Part shown: positions 39,602 to 45,434 of the stretch, piece after piece
Layout: the number at the start of each line of letters is the position of its first letter
How positions within the stretch are numbered: the stretch's first letter is position 1
Assembly: GCF_029223525.1 (NCBI RefSeq)
Contig: NZ_JARHTQ010000021.1
Location: 62,001 to 126,000, forward strand
Direction of reading: 5' to 3'
Length of the DNA: 64,000 nucleotides
DNA from: Streptantibioticus ferralitis
Lineage (GTDB): Bacteria > Actinomycetota > Actinomycetes > Streptomycetales > Streptomycetaceae
Notes under the pieces: generated by a model
The model's input: the letters and a program-made list of their open reading frames with translations, nothing else
Told to the model about the DNA's origin: nothing
Database searches by the model: none
Made by a program: the position numbers and the translations under genes

Positions 39602-41584
39602 TCACACCTGGATGCGGCGCTCCACAGCGTCAACGATCTCGGCCAGCGCTTCGTCACGCGGGATGCCGTTCTTCTGCGAGCCGTCGCGGTAGCGGAAGCT
39701 CACCGCACCGTTCGCGACATCCTCATCACCGGCGATGACCATGAACGGCACCTTCTGCTTCTGCGCGTTCCTGATCTTCTTCTGCATGCGTTCCGAGGAC
39801 GCGTCCACCTCGATGCGCAGACCCTTGGCCCGCGCCGCCGACGCGAACTCCTCCAGGTACGGCACATGGGCGTCGCCGATCGGGATGCCGACCGCCTGCA
39901 CGGGCGCGAGCCAGGCCGGGAAGGCGCCCGCGTAGTGCTCGGTCAGTACCCCGAAGAACCGCTCGATGGAGCCGAAGAGTGCCCGGTGGATCATCACCGG
40001 ACGCTGCCGCGAGCCGTCGGCGGCCTGGAACTCCAGGTCGAACCGCTCCGGCAGGTTGAAGTCCACCTGGATCGTGGACATCTGCCAGCTGCGGCCGATC
40101 GCGTCCCGTGCCTGGACGGAGATCTTCGGGCCGTAGAAGGCGGCGCCGCCCGGGTCCATCACCAGTTCAAGGCCCTGCTTCTCGGCGGCCTCGCGCAGCG
40201 TCTGGGTGGCCTCCTCCCAGACCTCGTCGGAGCCGATGAACTTCTCCGGGTCCTTGGTGGACAGCTCCAGGTAGAAGTCGTTGAGCCCGTAGTCACGCAG
40301 CAGGTTCAGCACGAAGGTGAGCAGCGAGTCGAGCTCGTCGGCCATCTGCTCCTTGGTGCAGTAGATGTGCGCGTCGTCCTGGGTCAGCCCGCGGACCCGG
40401 GTCAGTCCGTGCACCACGCCGGACTTCTCGTACCGGTAGACGGTGCCGAACTCGAAGAGACGCAGCGGGAGTTCGCGGTAGGAGCGCCCCCGGGACCTGA
40501 AGATCAGGTTGTGCATGGGGCAGTTCATGGGCTTGAGGTAGTACTTGTGGCCCTCGTCCAGCTCCATGGGCGGGTACATGCCGTCCGCGTACCAGTCCAG
40601 GTGGCCGGAGGTCTGGTACAGCTCCTGCTTGGTGATGTGCGGGGTGTTGACGAACGAGTACCCGGCCTCCTCGTGGCGACGGCGCGAGTAGTCCTCCATC
40701 ACCCGGCGGATGACACCGCCCTTGGGGTGGAACACCGGCAGACCCGAGCCGATCTCCTCGGGGAAGGAGAACAGGTCGAGCTCGGCGCCGAGCTTGCGGT
40801 GATCACGCTTCTCGGCCTCGGCCAGCCGGTCGAGGTAGGCCTTCAGCTCGTCCTTCGACGGCCAGGCGGTGCCGTAGATCCGCTGCAGCTGCGGGTTCTT
40901 CTCGCTGCCGCGCCAGTACGCGGCGGCGGTGCGCATCAGCTTGAACGCCGGGATGTTCCGGGTGGTGGGCAGGTGCGGACCGCGGCACAGATCCTTCCAG
41001 CACAGGTCGCCGGTCTTGGCGTCGAGGTTGTCGTAGATGGTCAGCTCACCGGCGCCGACCTCGGCGGAGGCGCCCTCGGCGGCGTCCGCGGCGGAGCCCT
41101 TGAGACCGATCAGCTCCAGCTTGTACGGCTCGGCGGCGAGCTCCTCGCGGGCCGCCTCGTCGCTCACCGCGCGGCGCGAGAAGCGCTGGCCGCGCTTGAT
41201 GATCTCCTGCATCTTCTTCTCGACGCGCTTGAGATCGTCCGGGTTGAACGGCTGGTCGACGTCGAAGTCGTAGTAGAAGCCGTCCTTGATCGGCGGACCG
41301 ATGCCGAGCTTGGCCTCCGGGAAGATCTCCTGCACCGCCTGCGCCATGACGTGCGCGGTCGAGTGGCGCAGGATGCTCAGCCCGTCCTCGCTGTCGATGG
41401 TGACCGGCTCCACCTCGTCGCCGTCGGCGAGCGGGTAGCCGAGGTCCTTCAGCTCACCGGCGACACGGGCAGCGACGACGGAGCGGTCCCCCTCGAAGAG
41501 GTCCGCGGCCGTCGTCCCCGTCGTGACCACGCGATCTTCCCGTTCCACGGAATCGCGTTTGATGATCACACGGAGCTCTGACAC
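39602..41584 (-). CDS. thrS: Threonyl-tRNA synthetase
   Basis: Charges tRNA-Thr. The 660-residue protein has an N-terminal TGS domain (residues ~1-60), an editing domain with HSTAHVMA near residue 74 and CRGPHLP, the class II core ([35 protein letters not shown]) with its Zn ligands, and an anticodon-binding domain. The GTG at 41584 has AGGAG 8 bp upstream. I looked in the leader for a T-box and found none. Confidence 0.97.
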
Positions 41585-41726: not shown

Positions 41727-41819
41727 TCGCCCTCGCGGCGGGATTTTTTGGGGGCACGCCCCCAGTCCCCGGGGGTTCGGGGGCTTGCCCCCCAAAAAAG
41801 GATCCGCCGCGAATGGCGG
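41727..41819. terminator. Long palindrome with T6/A6 arms between thrS and the next gene
   Basis: TTTTTTGGGGGCACGCCCCC (41744 onward) mirrors GGGGGCTTGCCCCCCAAAAAA (ending 41799), with outer pairing between CGCGGCGGG and CCGCCGCG. Oligo-T flanks on either strand make it look like an intrinsic terminator for the partner gene at 41852, read leftward. Similar architecture is seen at 9851-9909. It lies in the thrS leader region, so it also precedes the thrS promoter. Confidence 0.7.
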
Positions 41820-41851: not shown

Positions 41852-43045
41852 CTAGTCGACCGCCTCCGCGGCCTCCTGCAAGGACTTGAGCAACCGGTCG
41901 CGCTCAGCGGCGTCAAGCCGCAGCAGCCTCACCCCGCGCGCCCCGGCCAGCCGCCGGAAGCGGCGCCGCGGCTCCAGCGCTCCGCTGACCTGGATCGGCA
42001 ACCCCACGAGATGGGCGTGGGCGGCGACCCGATAGTCGTCCGCCCCCAACCGCATACGGACCTGCCGTACGTCCGCACCGCCGAGCACCCGCAGCCGCAC
42101 CGCACCGCCCTCCGCCGGAAGGGCGCTGCGCAGCCGGACCACGGTCCCGATCACGGTGACCGGAACCGGCGGCTCCGCGGCGGCGTAGCGCTCGGCGGCC
42201 TGCTGCAACGCGGGCAGATCGCCCGGAGAGAACTCCACCGGCTCCGGGCGGGCGGCCACCCCGAGCGGCAGCCCGGCCGCCGGGGACCAGGCCAAGGCGA
42301 TCTCGGCGCCTTCGCTGTCCCGCACCAAGTGGGCCACCGCCGTGACGAGTTCATGGCACACGCCGAGCTCCACCGCGGCGTCGAACGCCTCGAGACGGCC
42401 GGTCGCCCGTTGGTAGTCCACCGCGTCGCGGGCCGCCTGCAGCGCGCGCAGCAGCGTCATCGTGACGGAGCGGCCGTCCGGCGCCGGGGCGTACGCGGTC
42501 ACCAGGTGGCCGCCGGAGGAGGGCCCGATGAGCACCTGCTCCAGGTAGGCGGTGGCGTACCGCCCGTGCCGCTCCCCGAAGTACCCCGCCTTGCCCTGGG
42601 CGGCCCGGGCCGCGGCCGTGAGCATCCCGCGCACCGCGGTCCGCAGCTGCTCCGCCGCCGTCCACGGCACCGCTCCGGCGCACCGTGGCACATCACGCCG
42701 CCAGCGGATCTCGTCCCCCGGCACCGAGAGCGCCAGCAGCACCTCGCGGGCCGAGGGTGCGCCGGAGTGGGCGAGCGCGGTCAGCGCCTCGCCGACCAGG
42801 TCGGCATAGTCCCCGTACGCCCGGCCCGCGGGCACCAGCAGGCTGGACGCCGTGACGCCACGCCGGACGTCGCTGCCAGGCGGCGTCCACCGGGTGTACC
42901 GCCCGCTCTCGCCGCCCCTGCGCTGCCAGCCGTGCCGGGCGAGCAGTGCGGTGAGCACATCGGGGTCGACGCGCTCGGGGTCGGGCAGTTCGGCTTCGGG
43001 CAGCTCCGGGCCGGATACGTCGGAGTCCTCTCCGGTCAGTCGCAT
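41852..43045 (-). CDS. Hypothetical protein paired with DUF4365 gene
   Basis: A 397-residue soluble protein without a motif I recognise. An acidic N-terminus (GEDSDVSGPELPEAELPDPE) leads to HGWQRRGGESGRYTRWTPPG, a central helical part and an Arg/Leu-rich C-terminus (RRFRRLAGARGVRLLRLDAAERDRLLKSL). The ATG at 43045 overlaps the stop of the DUF4365 gene by 4 bp, so the two products are probably made together. The order thrS-this pair-exonuclease appears conserved in streptomycetes. Function unknown. Confidence 0.85.
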   Translation of the reverse strand: MRLTGEDSDVSGPELPEAELPDPERVDPDVLTALLARHGWQRRGGESGRYTRWTPPGSDVRRGVTASSLLVPAGRAYGDYADLVGEALTALAHSGAPSAREVLLALSVPGDEIRWRRDVPRCAGAVPWTAAEQLRTAVRGMLTAAARAAQGKAGYFGERHGRYATAYLEQVLIGPSSGGHLVTAYAPAPDGRSVTMTLLRALQAARDAVDYQRATGRLEAFDAAVELGVCHELVTAVAHLVRDSEGAEIALAWSPAAGLPLGVAARPEPVEFSPGDLPALQQAAERYAAAEPPVPVTVIGTVVRLRSALPAEGGAVRLRVLGGADVRQVRMRLGADDYRVAAHAHLVGLPIQVSGALEPRRRFRRLAGARGVRLLRLDAAERDRLLKSLQEAAEAVD

Positions 43046-43611
43046 CAGGGTCTCCCTCCCGCCCCGACCCGCGTCATGATCTCGCACAGCGCCCGGTCGT
43101 CGAAGATCCGGGCGGTGGGGATCCGCACGGTGGTCTTGTACCTGCCCGTCACCGGCTGACCGGCGAGGTTCGTCCAGTAGCAGCAGTGCCTCAGCTCCAT
43201 GCGGTCGTGGCCCGCGCGCAGCCACTGCTCCTGGCTGCGCGGGACCAGCATCACGACGAGGATCTTGTGCACCGAGACCGGTGTGCGGGCCAGCTTGGCG
43301 AGGTGGGCGTTCTCCAAGGTGAACGAGAAGAACGGCCCCGGAGGGTTCGGTGCCACCTGGTAGGTGCACTTGAGCTGCACCTTTATGGTGATCTCGTCGT
43401 CGACCGCATGGCCGTGGGAGCTGTGGCTGAGGTGCCAGTCGATGCCGTTGTCGGGAAAGGGCTGGGCGAGCGAGCATCCGGCCGCCGCGGCCACCGCATG
43501 CAGATAGCCCACCTGCAGGGTCTCCATACAACTGGTGGTGGCGAGTCCTCCCCGTAGCGGTGCCGTCCGTTCGGGAAGCAGCGCGCCGGGTTCGGGCTGA
43601 GCGAGCGCCAT
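43045..43611 (-). CDS. DUF4365 protein, possible PD-(D/E)XK nuclease fold
   Basis: A 188-residue protein. After a short leader, YLHAVAAAAGCSLAQPFPDNGIDWHL and ITIKVQLKCTYQ give the order D58 ... Q79-L-K81, resembling the core of PD-(D/E)XK-type nucleases (D...QxK). SFTLENAHLAKLA and the C-terminal FDDRALCEIM are further family features. The nuclease idea is inference from this pattern. It is translationally coupled to the 397-residue gene downstream. A neighbouring DnaQ-like exonuclease diverges from it. Confidence 0.85.
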   Translation of the reverse strand: MALAQPEPGALLPERTAPLRGGLATTSCMETLQVGYLHAVAAAAGCSLAQPFPDNGIDWHLSHSSHGHAVDDEITIKVQLKCTYQVAPNPPGPFFSFTLENAHLAKLARTPVSVHKILVVMLVPRSQEQWLRAGHDRMELRHCCYWTNLAGQPVTGRYKTTVRIPTARIFDDRALCEIMTRVGAGGRP

Positions 43612-43852: not shown

Positions 43853-44581
43853 ATGGCGCGTTGGTTCGAAGGGCCCCTCGCCTCGTTCGACACCGAGACC
43901 ACCGGTGTGGACGTGGAGCATGACCGCATAGTGTCCGGCGCACTCGTGCTGCAGGACAGCGATGGTGCCGAACCGCGCTTCCTGCGCTGGCTGGTTGACC
44001 CCGGTGTGCCGGTGCCCGAGGCCGCGACGGCCGTCCACGGGCTGACCGACGCCCATCTGCGGGAGCACGGCGGGGCTCCTGGTCCGGCCGTCGAGTCGAT
44101 GGCCCGGGCGCTGGCACGCGAAGCGGAGCCTTCCACACCGCTGGTGGTGATGAACGCCCCGTTCGATCTGACCCTGCTCGACCGGGAGCTGAAGCGCCAT
44201 CGCGGGATCGGCCTGTTCGGGTACATGGAGCGCACCGCGCTGTGCGTACTGGACCCGAGGGTGCTCGACAAGTACGCCGACCGCTACCGCAAGGGCCGCC
44301 GTACGCTCGGCGACCTGTGCGCGCACTACGGCGTCCCGCTCACCGACGCACATGACGCGGCGGCGGACGCGCTGGCGTCACTGCGTCTGGTGCGGGCGAT
44401 CGGCCACCGTTACGCGGAGCAGAGCCTCGGCAGGATGACGCCGGCGGAGCTCCATGTGCGACAGGCGCTGTGGCACGCGGCGCAGGCACGCGGCCTTGAG
44501 GCCTGGTTCGCCAGGAACGGCTCGGCGGAGCGCTGTGATCCGGCGTGGCCGCTGCGCCCTGAACTGCCCGCCGCGGCCTAG
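43853..44581 (+). CDS. DnaQ-like 3'-5' exonuclease (DEDDh)
   Basis: A 242-residue single-domain exonuclease. Exo I is FDTETTG (D13, E15), Exo II is VMNAPFDLTLLDRE, and Exo III is HDAAADA, giving the DEDDh set. This is the epsilon-like proofreading fold, but no polymerase-binding tail is visible; it might act in repair or RNA trimming. I chose the ATG at 43853 behind GAGAGGGGAG; an ATG at 43769 would add 28 residues without homology. It diverges from the DUF4365 gene. Confidence 0.93.
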   Translation: MARWFEGPLASFDTETTGVDVEHDRIVSGALVLQDSDGAEPRFLRWLVDPGVPVPEAATAVHGLTDAHLREHGGAPGPAVESMARALAREAEPSTPLVVMNAPFDLTLLDRELKRHRGIGLFGYMERTALCVLDPRVLDKYADRYRKGRRTLGDLCAHYGVPLTDAHDAAADALASLRLVRAIGHRYAEQSLGRMTPAELHVRQALWHAAQARGLEAWFARNGSAERCDPAWPLRPELPAAA

Positions 44582-44677: not shown

Positions 44678-44685
44678 GACCAGGG

Positions 44686-44757
44686 TGGGCGATACTGGGT
44701 TCGAACCAGTGACCTCTTCGGTGTGAACGAAGCGCTCTCCCACTGAGCTAATCGCCC
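44686..44757 (-). tRNA. tRNA-Val (anticodon CAC)
   Basis: A 72-nt cloverleaf on the minus strand: acceptor GGGCGAT pairs with ATCGCCC, D-arm TAGCTCAG, anticodon stem CTTCG/CGAAG with loop TTCACAC giving anticodon CAC, T-arm CTGGTTCGAACCCAG, discriminator A. The 3' CCA is not encoded. It decodes GUG. An identical gene lies at 45363-45434. The terminator at 44644-44677 follows it directly. Confidence 0.96.
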
Positions 44758-45352: not shown

Positions 45353-45362
45353 CTGACCAGGG

Positions 45363-45434
45363 TGGGCGATACTGGGTTCGAACCAGTGACCTCTTCGGTG
45401 TGAACGAAGCGCTCTCCCACTGAGCTAATCGCCC
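45363..45434 (-). tRNA. tRNA-Val (anticodon CAC), second copy
   Basis: Identical in sequence over all 72 nt to the gene at 44686-44757: acceptor GGGCGAT/ATCGCCC, anticodon CAC, T-arm CTGGTTCGAACCCAG, discriminator A, no encoded CCA. The 3' flank (TGACCAGGG on the plus strand) is also shared, so the copies probably arose by duplication of a segment slightly longer than the tRNA. Confidence 0.96.

What the first reader, a model, noticed from the sequence alone, without database searches (positions are those of the whole stretch)
41852..43611. Translationally coupled DUF4365 + unknown pair beside a DEDDh exonuclease
DUF4365 has a D...QxK pattern that would suit a PD-(D/E)XK nuclease, and its ATGA-coupled partner is a 397-residue protein with no visible motif. 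The divergent neighbour is a DnaQ-like exonuclease. The setting is compatible with a DNA or RNA processing or defence module that is poorly described, although it lies in core-genome context. This is the best candidate in the window for an undescribed two-component unit.
Basis: inference. Interest (0 to 1): 0.55.

Follow-up and report, generated by a model that had tools for sequence, protein, structure and literature searches.

The report
Argonaute-free DREN nuclease with OB-fold partner
Two overlapping genes encode a predicted DNA/RNA-cutting enzyme and a partner with a predicted nucleic-acid-binding fold; the pair is a catalogued but apparently untested anti-virus candidate that rides on plasmids and viruses elsewhere, yet is inherited like an ordinary chromosomal gene pair in most Streptomyces relatives sampled.

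Summary
In detail: 43045-43611(-) encodes a 188-aa DUF4365 protein and 41852-43045(-) a 397-aa partner; they overlap by one base (TGATG, not ATGA). The nuclease reading is well supported: the AF2 model is closest to SPARDA's DREN nuclease (Z 13.0) and to Hjc, and D58/Q79/K81 are kept in 81 of 81 Streptomycetaceae copies compared. The partner is not motif-free: residues 291-382 model as an OB fold. The unit is not uncatalogued: both proteins match the PADLOC-DB candidate defence pair PDC-M02A/B (6e-92, 3e-158), though no held paper names it. Of 18 plasmid and phage stretches read, 18 hold the partner and 16 the nuclease. Nostoc plasmids carry a minimal partner (N-domain plus OB region). In Streptomycetaceae 195 of 297 genomes hold the core copy; in 80 named loci it lies between an exonuclease and thrS, under purifying selection; losses occur. 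Best explanation: an Argonaute-free sensor/effector nuclease, mobile elsewhere and vertically inherited here. The DEDDh exonuclease is a neighbour and was not found in those 18 stretches. Activity, trigger and phenotype are untested.

The parts
43045..43611 (-). Gene 1 (P0001): 188-aa DUF4365 / DREN-type PD-(D/E)XK nuclease, PDC-M02A
   Evidence: Pfam 6.3e-20; PADLOC PDC-M02A 6.1e-92; AF2 pLDDT 77, pTM 0.74; best structural match SPARDA DREN 9qcc_Y Z 13.0, 3.4 A over 135 aa
43438..43440 (-). codon of D58 (predicted metal ligand; position of D41 in NbaSPARDA by residue spacing and overall structural alignment)
   Evidence: conserved 81 of 81 and 22 of 22; D41 in NbaSPARDA from PMC12205087 section 8
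43375..43377 (-). codon of Q79 (position of Q60 in NbaSPARDA)
   Evidence: 81 of 81; 21 of 22
43369..43371 (-). codon of K81 (position of K62 in NbaSPARDA)
   Evidence: 81 of 81; 21 of 22
41852..43045 (-). Gene 2 (P0002): 397-aa partner, PDC-M02B
   Evidence: PADLOC PDC-M02B 2.7e-158; AF2 pLDDT 85.8, pTM 0.78
42689..42976 (-). Gene 2 N-domain (about residues 24-119), the part shared with the minimal Nostoc partner; fold not identified
   Evidence: invariant W40 and D79, near-invariant P72 in the 14 rows; Nostoc plasmid partners align here
42176..42688 (-). Gene 2 middle region (about residues 120-290), missing in the Nostoc partners
   Evidence: absent in the 175-180 aa partners of L200-L202
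41900..42175 (-). Gene 2 C-terminal OB fold (residues 291-382), predicted
   Evidence: strand/helix order b-b-b-a-b-b in the model; SilF, SSB, RecO, PriB and RPA among the best matches, Z 7-9.8; no Foldseek PDB match below E 0.002
43043..43047 (-). TGATG overlap of gene 1 stop and gene 2 start
   Evidence: overlap kept in 71 of 78 loci
41728..41818 (-). Long hairpin between gene 2 and thrS, terminator-like and part of a dispersed repeat
   Evidence: fold z-score -3.48; part of it occurs 18 times in the genome with up to 2 mismatches, reversed control 0
43853..44581 (+). Neighbour, not counted as a component: DnaQ-like DEDDh exonuclease
   Evidence: NCBIfam PRK07942 1.3e-80; orthologue present without core gene 1 in 53 of 297 genomes
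39602..41584 (-). Neighbour: thrS, threonyl-tRNA synthetase
   Evidence: TIGR00418 6.1e-198; downstream of the pair in 76 of 80 loci, the other four being short contigs
44684..44757 (-). Neighbour: tRNA-Val (CAC), on the side of the lineage-specific deletion that removes gene 1

Best explanation
The pair is an Argonaute-free effector/sensor nuclease module of the PDC-M02 kind. Gene 1 is a small DREN-type PD-(D/E)XK nuclease that is probably inactive, or kept in check, alone. Gene 2, made in step with it by overlapping stop and start codons, binds it (most likely through its N-domain) and senses or holds nucleic acid through its C-terminal OB fold, assembling the nuclease into an active oligomer when invading or damaged nucleic acid is met. 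It would do the job that Argonaute plus the APAZ domain do for DREN in SPARDA. Elsewhere it is a mobile defence-type cassette. In Streptomycetaceae one copy became established beside thrS and has since been inherited vertically under purifying selection. Shown: gene pairing, nuclease fold by prediction, kept catalytic residues, OB fold by prediction, carriage on plasmids and phages elsewhere, conserved locus and selection here. Inferred: physical complex, nucleic-acid sensing, activation by assembly, defence function.
For: PADLOC A/B matches of both proteins. Fold match of gene 1 to SPARDA DREN, Z 13.0, above Hjc at 11.3, with nearly the D/Q/K spacing of the residues shown to be catalytic in NbaSPARDA (PMC12205087 section 8); Q62/K64 mutated as predicted active-site residues in TmuRE (PMC10810196, passages). 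OB fold in gene 2. Both genes in 90 of 93 loci, three cut by contig ends or starts; gene 2 in 18 of 18 and gene 1 in 16 of 18 plasmid and phage stretches. Defence-like or mobile neighbours in some: three DUF262 proteins and an Abi protein, type I-E cas3, RelE-type toxin, end of a prophage record, recombinases. Selection and overlap. Core nuclease without partner: only one of 195, at a contig end; core partner without core nuclease: 5 genomes.
Against: No sequence-level match of gene 1 or its profile to a DREN chain in the PDB: the link is by Pfam family and fold only. The OB matches are modest: no Foldseek PDB match below E 0.002, and the tool warns that Z under 8 may mean only a common arrangement. 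No complex could be predicted. The conserved OB residues look structural, with no conserved aromatic or basic patch noticed by eye. A nuclease as conserved as thrS at one locus is not what an arms-race defence gene usually looks like. One lineage keeps the middle and OB part of gene 2 without gene 1, with low dN/dS in three of four, so gene 2 may do something that does not need the nuclease. One copy (G010/L022) has lost Q79 and K81 but keeps both frames open. Two of 18 mobile stretches have no recognised gene 1 (L179, L207). Several neighbourhoods do not look like defence, and many of the plasmids are typed non-mobilizable.
Confidence: 0.55

Rival explanations
1. Domesticated housekeeping role: in Streptomycetaceae the pair is a DNA-processing or repair unit (for example trimming of damaged, stalled or linear-end DNA), working in a pathway with the neighbouring DnaQ-like exonuclease, and is no longer a defence system.
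For: Purifying selection on gene 1 (median dN/dS 0.131) at least as strong as on thrS (0.187), the ATP-adenylyltransferase-like HIT gene (0.175) and the exonuclease (0.198); its distances and those of gene 2 correlate with ThrS distances about as well as those of the neighbours do (r 0.57 and 0.60 against 0.60 and 0.54). 195 of 297 family genomes hold the core copy. 193 of those 195 also hold the exonuclease orthologue. OB-fold relatives RecO, PriB and SSB act in DNA repair and replication (roles recalled).
Against: The pair is missing from many genomes that keep the exonuclease (53 of 297); in the 7 such loci read, thrS lies 0.2-0.9 kb from it. Copies on plasmids and phages of several phyla have no exonuclease neighbour (0 of 18 stretches). 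The nesting inside exonuclease-bearing genomes can come from shared locus history alone.
Confidence: 0.25
2. Toxin-antitoxin-like pair: gene 1 is a self-toxic nuclease, gene 2 its inhibitor, released by stress or infection.
For: The core nuclease is essentially never found without the partner, while the partner tolerates loss of the nuclease. Plasmid and prophage carriage and overlapping genes. The best known relative, DREN, is a collateral nuclease (PMC12205087).
Against: The effector gene comes first and the partner is a large three-part protein. DREN alone is monomeric and showed undetectable activity in NbaSPARDA, so an inhibitor may not be needed. Four of the five partner-only genomes may stem from one deletion, so the asymmetry is weak.
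Confidence: 0.12
3. Sequence- or modification-specific restriction pair, with gene 1 cutting and gene 2 recognising DNA.
For: PD-(D/E)XK fold with restriction enzymes among weaker matches (DpnI Z 6.3, EcoRV 5.5); the Entomospira copy sits beside DUF262 proteins.
Against: No methyltransferase next to the pair in the window or among the annotated genes of the plasmid and phage stretches read, except one class I methyltransferase about 3.5 kb away. Hjc and DREN match better. The identified domain of gene 2 is OB, not a known base-reading domain.
Confidence: 0.05

Closest known systems
PDC-M02 (PADLOC-DB 2.0.0 candidate defence pair, A and B)
   Same: Both proteins match over nearly full length, adjacent and in the order A then B; the LE1 phage and Nostoc pairs match the same model names, and so do the partners from the M. 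abscessus prophage, an IMG/VR contig and Entomospira.
   Different: The catalogue entry as shown carries no mechanism or description, and no held paper contains the term PDC-M02. Here it is a conserved chromosomal locus, not a mobile island.
SPARDA (short Argonaute with DREN-APAZ)
   Same: Gene 1 shares the DREN/DUF4365 family, fold and D/Q/K residues.
   Different: No Argonaute or APAZ match: DREN stands alone and the partner is predicted to be an OB-fold protein.
Archaeal Holliday-junction resolvase Hjc / Mrr-like PD-(D/E)XK nucleases
   Same: Same core fold, 1gef Z 11.3, 2.7 A over 112 aa.
   Different: A second gene goes with it; no junction specificity known; a DUF4365 member by Pfam.
Leptospira phage LE1 gp38-gp37
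   Same: DUF4365 gene (3.5e-18) followed by a 381-aa protein; an LE1 protein of 381 aa matches the gene 2 model over its length (Foldseek 2.5e-17, TM 0.52); both genes match PDC-M02.
   Different: Carried by a temperate phage; genes 2 bases apart rather than overlapping.
OB-fold single-strand binding and repair proteins (SSB, PriB, RecO, RPA)
   Same: C-terminal domain of gene 2, Z 7-8.4.
   Different: Two further regions in gene 2; nucleic-acid binding not tested. SilF (a metal-binding OB protein) scores highest (9.8) and OB toxin subunits are also in the list, so the fold alone does not prove nucleic-acid binding.

Membership tests
PDC-M02 | component A model matches gene 1 | tested here: met
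   PDLC04276 6.1e-92, residues 1-188
PDC-M02 | component B model matches gene 2, adjacent to A | tested here: met
   PDLC04317 2.7e-158, residues 18-394; overlap at 43045
PDC-M02 | protects against phages or other mobile elements | not testable with these tools
   needs bench work; it is a candidate only
DUF4365 / DREN PD-(D/E)XK nuclease | Pfam PF14280 above cut-off | tested here: met
   72.1 bits against 24.3
DUF4365 / DREN PD-(D/E)XK nuclease | PD-(D/E)XK core fold | tested here: met
   model and matches; a prediction, not a solved structure
DUF4365 / DREN PD-(D/E)XK nuclease | catalytic D, Q, K kept | tested here: met
   81 of 81; 22, 21 and 21 of 22; equivalence to D41/Q60/K62 rests on spacing and overall superposition, not on a residue-by-residue table
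DUF4365 / DREN PD-(D/E)XK nuclease | nuclease activity | not testable with these tools
   -
SPARDA | DREN-type nuclease domain | tested here: met
SPARDA | APAZ domain on the nuclease and a short Argonaute partner | tested here: not met
   gene 1 is one domain of 188 aa; gene 2 has no Argonaute match in Pfam or NCBIfam at E up to 1, nor among the 25 shown of 27 PADLOC families, all 25 PDC-M02B; its neighbours are thrS and the exonuclease
OB-fold nucleic-acid-binding proteins | five-stranded OB barrel with helix between strands 3 and 4 | tested here: met
   element order 294-306, 314-322, 328-333, helix 335-347, 351-359, 364-374; matches; predicted only
OB-fold nucleic-acid-binding proteins | binds single-stranded DNA or RNA | not testable with these tools
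   -
Toxin-antitoxin pair | gene 1 toxic alone and neutralised by gene 2 | not testable with these tools
   only a one-sided loss pattern was seen

The most novel reading that the evidence does not exclude
A mobile nuclease-plus-OB defence cassette was domesticated once in Streptomycetaceae and now does a cell-autonomous nucleic-acid job (for example surveillance of damaged or foreign single-stranded DNA, or controlled DNA breakdown in development), possibly in the same pathway as the neighbouring DEDDh exonuclease. After loss of the nuclease in one lineage the OB half is still kept under selection.
Probability: 0.27. Interest if true: 0.75.

Novelty: new member of a known kind. Interest (0 to 1): 0.5.

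Why it matters
It gives a concrete predicted anatomy to a catalogued defence candidate: a DREN nuclease without Argonaute, and an OB-fold partner reducible to N-domain plus OB region. It also places that candidate at a conserved chromosomal locus in an easily handled bacterial family. That makes two open questions testable: how DREN nucleases are switched on without a guide-loaded Argonaute, and how a mobile immune cassette becomes core genome.

Tried and rejected
Sequence search of both proteins and their profiles against the PDB found nothing useful. Rfam at gathering threshold found only seven tRNAs in the window. The literature was searched for PDC-M02 (none), DUF4365 (10 papers; two read in passages, one in passages and one section, the rest as listing), PADLOC and candidate names (listings; PMC9252829 in passages), SPARDA/DREN with OB-fold (listing) and SCO1531-SCO1534, gene numbers recalled for S. 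coelicolor and not verified (one listing, term not found in its main text). No paper on this pair was seen in that library, which lacks most subscription journals and all bioRxiv preprints.

The exonuclease as a functional component was considered and set aside. It is nested with the pair (193 of 195), but it also stays when the pair is absent (53 genomes) and was not found in 18 plasmid and phage stretches. The Fisher value ignores shared ancestry and is not used as evidence.

The intact open frame of the truncated partner in G067/G169/G292/G320 was not counted as evidence by itself, because high-G+C genomes keep frames open by chance; dN/dS was used instead (0.13-0.26 among L209-L211, 0.37-0.50 against L212). 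The dN/dS values are NG86 estimates on high-G+C codons and are only used relative to each other; pairs of sequences are not independent.

The phylum survey (matches only inside the family; about 287 of the 296 genomes lie outside it) scored at most 11 or 6 candidates per genome, and diverged pairs in that phylum are known from prophage and plasmids, so it shows rarity, not absence.

Rows dropped before counts. One search aligned 22 of the 33 gene 1 sequences referenced (close duplicates left out; the broken copy of L008 was never referenced). P2, ThrS and HIT codon alignments hold 74, 76 and 61 of 81 sequences because short or stop-containing hits were left out. Eleven of 206 genomes with E above 1e-30 for gene 1 were treated as diverged copies or remnants, leaving 195 core. 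Of 91 family genomes without gene 1, the locus was looked for in the 20 listed with no gene 1 or gene 2 match plus G067, G263, G292 and G320. The 18 mobile stretches are those fetched, not all the plasmid hits.
Full report
Check of the observation. Gene 1, 43045-43611 on the minus strand, encodes 188 residues; gene 2, 41852-43045, encodes 397. They share one base (TGATG). Gene 1 is a DUF4365 protein (6.3e-20); gene 2 has no Pfam match better than E 0.24 and no NCBIfam match. The divergent gene at 43853 is a DnaQ-like exonuclease of a known subfamily; the gene downstream of gene 2 is thrS (6.1e-198). The PADLOC library names both: gene 1 PDC-M02A (6.1e-92) and gene 2 PDC-M02B (2.7e-158). So the pair is a catalogued candidate defence system. 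No paper in the held library contains the term PDC-M02.

Gene 1 as a nuclease. The AF2 model (23 sequences, mean pLDDT 77, pTM 0.74; residues 1-25 unreliable) has the helix/strand order of a PD-(D/E)XK core. The best structures are the DREN domains of SPARDA (9qcc_Y, Z 13.0, 3.4 A, 135 residues), then Hjc resolvases (1gef, Z 11.3, 2.7 A, 112 residues). In NbaSPARDA, D41, Q60 and K62 are the catalytic residues; D41A and Q60A abolish and K62A impairs collateral cleavage, and DREN alone is monomeric with undetectable activity (PMC12205087, section 8 read in full; other passages). In TmuRE, Q62 and K64 were mutated to give an inactive form (PMC10810196, passages). DUF4365 was assigned to the Mrr subfamily of PD-(D/E)XK nucleases in PMC6299218 (passages). 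D58, Q79 and K81 have the same order and nearly the same spacing. They are kept in 81 of 81 Streptomycetaceae copies (the window and 80 named loci); over a wider set D58 is in 22 of 22 and Q79/K81 in 21 of 22, the exception being genome G010 (L022). Plain sequence and profile search does not reach the DREN chains, so this equivalence rests on family, fold and spacing.

Gene 2. The AF2 model (41 sequences, mean pLDDT 85.8, pTM 0.78) ends in a domain (291-382) with OB-fold element order. The listed matches to that part are OB proteins: SilF Z 9.8, SSBb 8.4, RecO 8.3, PriB 8.1-8.2, and many SSB and RPA chains near 7.5. These are modest: Foldseek gave no PDB match below E 0.002, the best being RPA, and the tool warns that Z under 8 can be a common arrangement; it is the element order and the uniform list that carry the call. 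Against viral models gene 2 matches a 381-residue protein of Leptospira phage LE1 over its length (2.5e-17, TM 0.52), by length gp37; the gene before gp37, gp38, is DUF4365 (3.5e-18). On three Nostoc plasmids read, DUF4365 is followed, with overlapping ends, by a protein of only 175-180 residues. Profiles of gene 2 match these short partners in two stretches, the N-domain and the C-terminal end (for example PADLOC 1-87 on profile 1-91 and 105-170 on profile 314-379; own profile 8-86 and 314-375). The minimal partner is therefore N-domain plus the OB region, and the middle can be missing.

The pair as a unit. Among 93 loci scanned with profiles of both proteins, 90 hold both; L113 and L115 end just after gene 1 and L144 starts inside gene 2. 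In 297 Streptomycetaceae genomes gene 1 is found in 206 and gene 2 in 206; 202 hold both, four only gene 1 (G091, G141, G241, G291) and four only gene 2 (G067, G263, G292, G320). G241 is a contig end, G091 and G291 hold only fragments of gene 1 at this locus, and G141 is a diverged match that was not followed. Stop and start overlap in 71 of 78 loci (34 ATGA, 18 GTGA, 15 TGATG, 4 both; 7 other). As annotated, pairs in other records also overlap by one or four bases: Gluconobacter, Entomospira, Pusillibacter, Phaeobacter, three Nostoc plasmids, an S. aurantiacus plasmid and an M. abscessus prophage. LE1 and Streptomyces sp. NBC_01568 have gaps of 2 and 5 bases instead.

Where it moves. Gene 2 relatives were found on 34 plasmid records with one query (16 of them over at least 80% of the query), 15 with another and 8 with a third, with overlap between the lists, and on phage records of Leptospira and Mycobacterium; P0002 itself finds no plasmid at E 1e-5. 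In 18 plasmid, phage and viral-contig stretches fetched, profiles find gene 2 in 18 and gene 1 in 16 (in L206 only its end, at the start of the record); L179 and L207 have no recognised gene 1, and L207 has only the middle of gene 2; the exonuclease is in none (tblastn, E up to 0.01). Neighbours include three DUF262 proteins and an Abi protein, type I-E cas3, a RelE-type toxin and recombinases. In the M. abscessus prophage the pair lies at positions 398-2160 of the 60.7-kb record. Not every context looks like defence: the Phaeobacter and Pusillibacter copies sit among transport and cell-surface genes, and many of the plasmids are typed non-mobilizable.

Where it stays. A core copy is in 195 of 297 family genomes. 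In 80 named loci the order is exonuclease (divergent), gene 1, gene 2, thrS: exonuclease 80 of 80, gene 2 78 of 80, thrS 76 of 80, the missing ones on short contigs. These 80 are the best-scoring loci of a capped search that had 461 relatives, so they lean towards intact copies. Median pairwise dN/dS is 0.131 for gene 1, 0.187 thrS, 0.175 the ATP-adenylyltransferase-like HIT gene (model below its cut-off), 0.198 exonuclease and 0.247 gene 2; protein-changing distances correlate with those of thrS (r 0.57 gene 1, 0.60 gene 2, 0.60 exonuclease, 0.54 HIT). I read this as vertical inheritance of an active-site-intact enzyme; no gene-tree test was run. In the phylum survey the pair appears only in this family (gene 1 in 6 of 296, gene 2 in 7 of 296), with the sensitivity limits given under rejected. 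The same genome also holds a second, diverged pair on another contig (L002).

How it is lost. Of 20 genomes with neither gene, 7 have the orthologous exonuclease, and in all 7 thrS lies 0.2-0.9 kb from it with no pair between (L150-L155, L157); in the other 13 only diverged exonucleases, or none, were found, so the site was not seen. Two genomes keep fragments of gene 1 of 38 and 55 aligned residues (L149, L156). Some copies look broken: gene 1 in two pieces in G017, a TAG in gene 2 of G023, gene 2 in two pieces in G036; sequencing error is not excluded. In four genomes (G067, G169, G292, G320) the exonuclease orthologue, gene 1 and the N-domain of gene 2 are gone, leaving the middle plus OB region between tRNA-Val and thrS. 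dN/dS among three of them is 0.13-0.26, and 0.37-0.50 against the fourth, so the remnant appears still constrained. G263 keeps gene 2 over residues 6-372 without gene 1, beside a diverged exonuclease, with raised dN/dS (0.55-0.66). Losing the N-domain together with the nuclease fits, but does not prove, that the N-domain is the docking part; one deletion explains it as well.

The exonuclease. 193 of 195 genomes with core gene 1 hold its orthologue (E up to 1e-70), and 53 genomes hold the orthologue without core gene 1. The two exceptions are G010, whose gene 1 has lost Q79 and K81, and G097, 76% complete. This is suggestive, but the genes share a locus and genomes share ancestry, so I treat it as a neighbour.

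Mechanism and verdict. The best reading is an effector nuclease (gene 1) licensed by a sensor or scaffold (gene 2, OB fold), the Argonaute-free counterpart of SPARDA's DREN. Nuclease fold, active-site conservation and gene pairing are supported by results. Complex formation, sensing and defence are inferred. The unusual part is not the module but its status: a defence-type cassette that looks vertically inherited and under strong constraint in one bacterial family. Whether it still defends, or has taken a housekeeping job, cannot be told from sequence.

Noticed in passing
L002 (G000:C26:91480-93131): The same genome carries a second, diverged DUF4365 plus partner pair on another contig.
   Followed up: partly
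L022 (genome G010): A copy with both frames open but Q79 and K81 replaced (R and T), in a genome without the exonuclease orthologue: possible catalytically dead nuclease.
   Followed up: partly
L209-L212 (genomes G169, G067, G292, G320): Partner without its N-domain, between tRNA-Val and thrS, nuclease and exonuclease gone, remnant with low dN/dS in three of four.
   Followed up: partly
41728-41818: Strong hairpin between gene 2 and thrS; part of it recurs 18 times in the genome with up to 2 mismatches against 0 for the reversed control. Probably a dispersed terminator-like repeat.
   Followed up: partly
L200-L202 (Nostoc plasmids): Minimal partner of 175-180 residues beside DUF4365; one plasmid also has a caspase-family gene, and another a DNA/RNA non-specific endonuclease next to a nuclease A inhibitor family gene.
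   Followed up: partly
L179 (Pigmentibacter ruber plasmid) and L207 (Ornithinimicrobium plasmid): Gene 2 relatives with no recognised nuclease gene. In L179 an annotated 110-aa protein sits in the DUF4365 position; in L207 only the middle of gene 2 matches.
   Followed up: partly
44684-44757 and 45361-45434: Two tRNA-Val (CAC) genes lie beside the locus; six of the seven relatives scanned also have two, the seventh stretch (L208) one.
   Followed up: no
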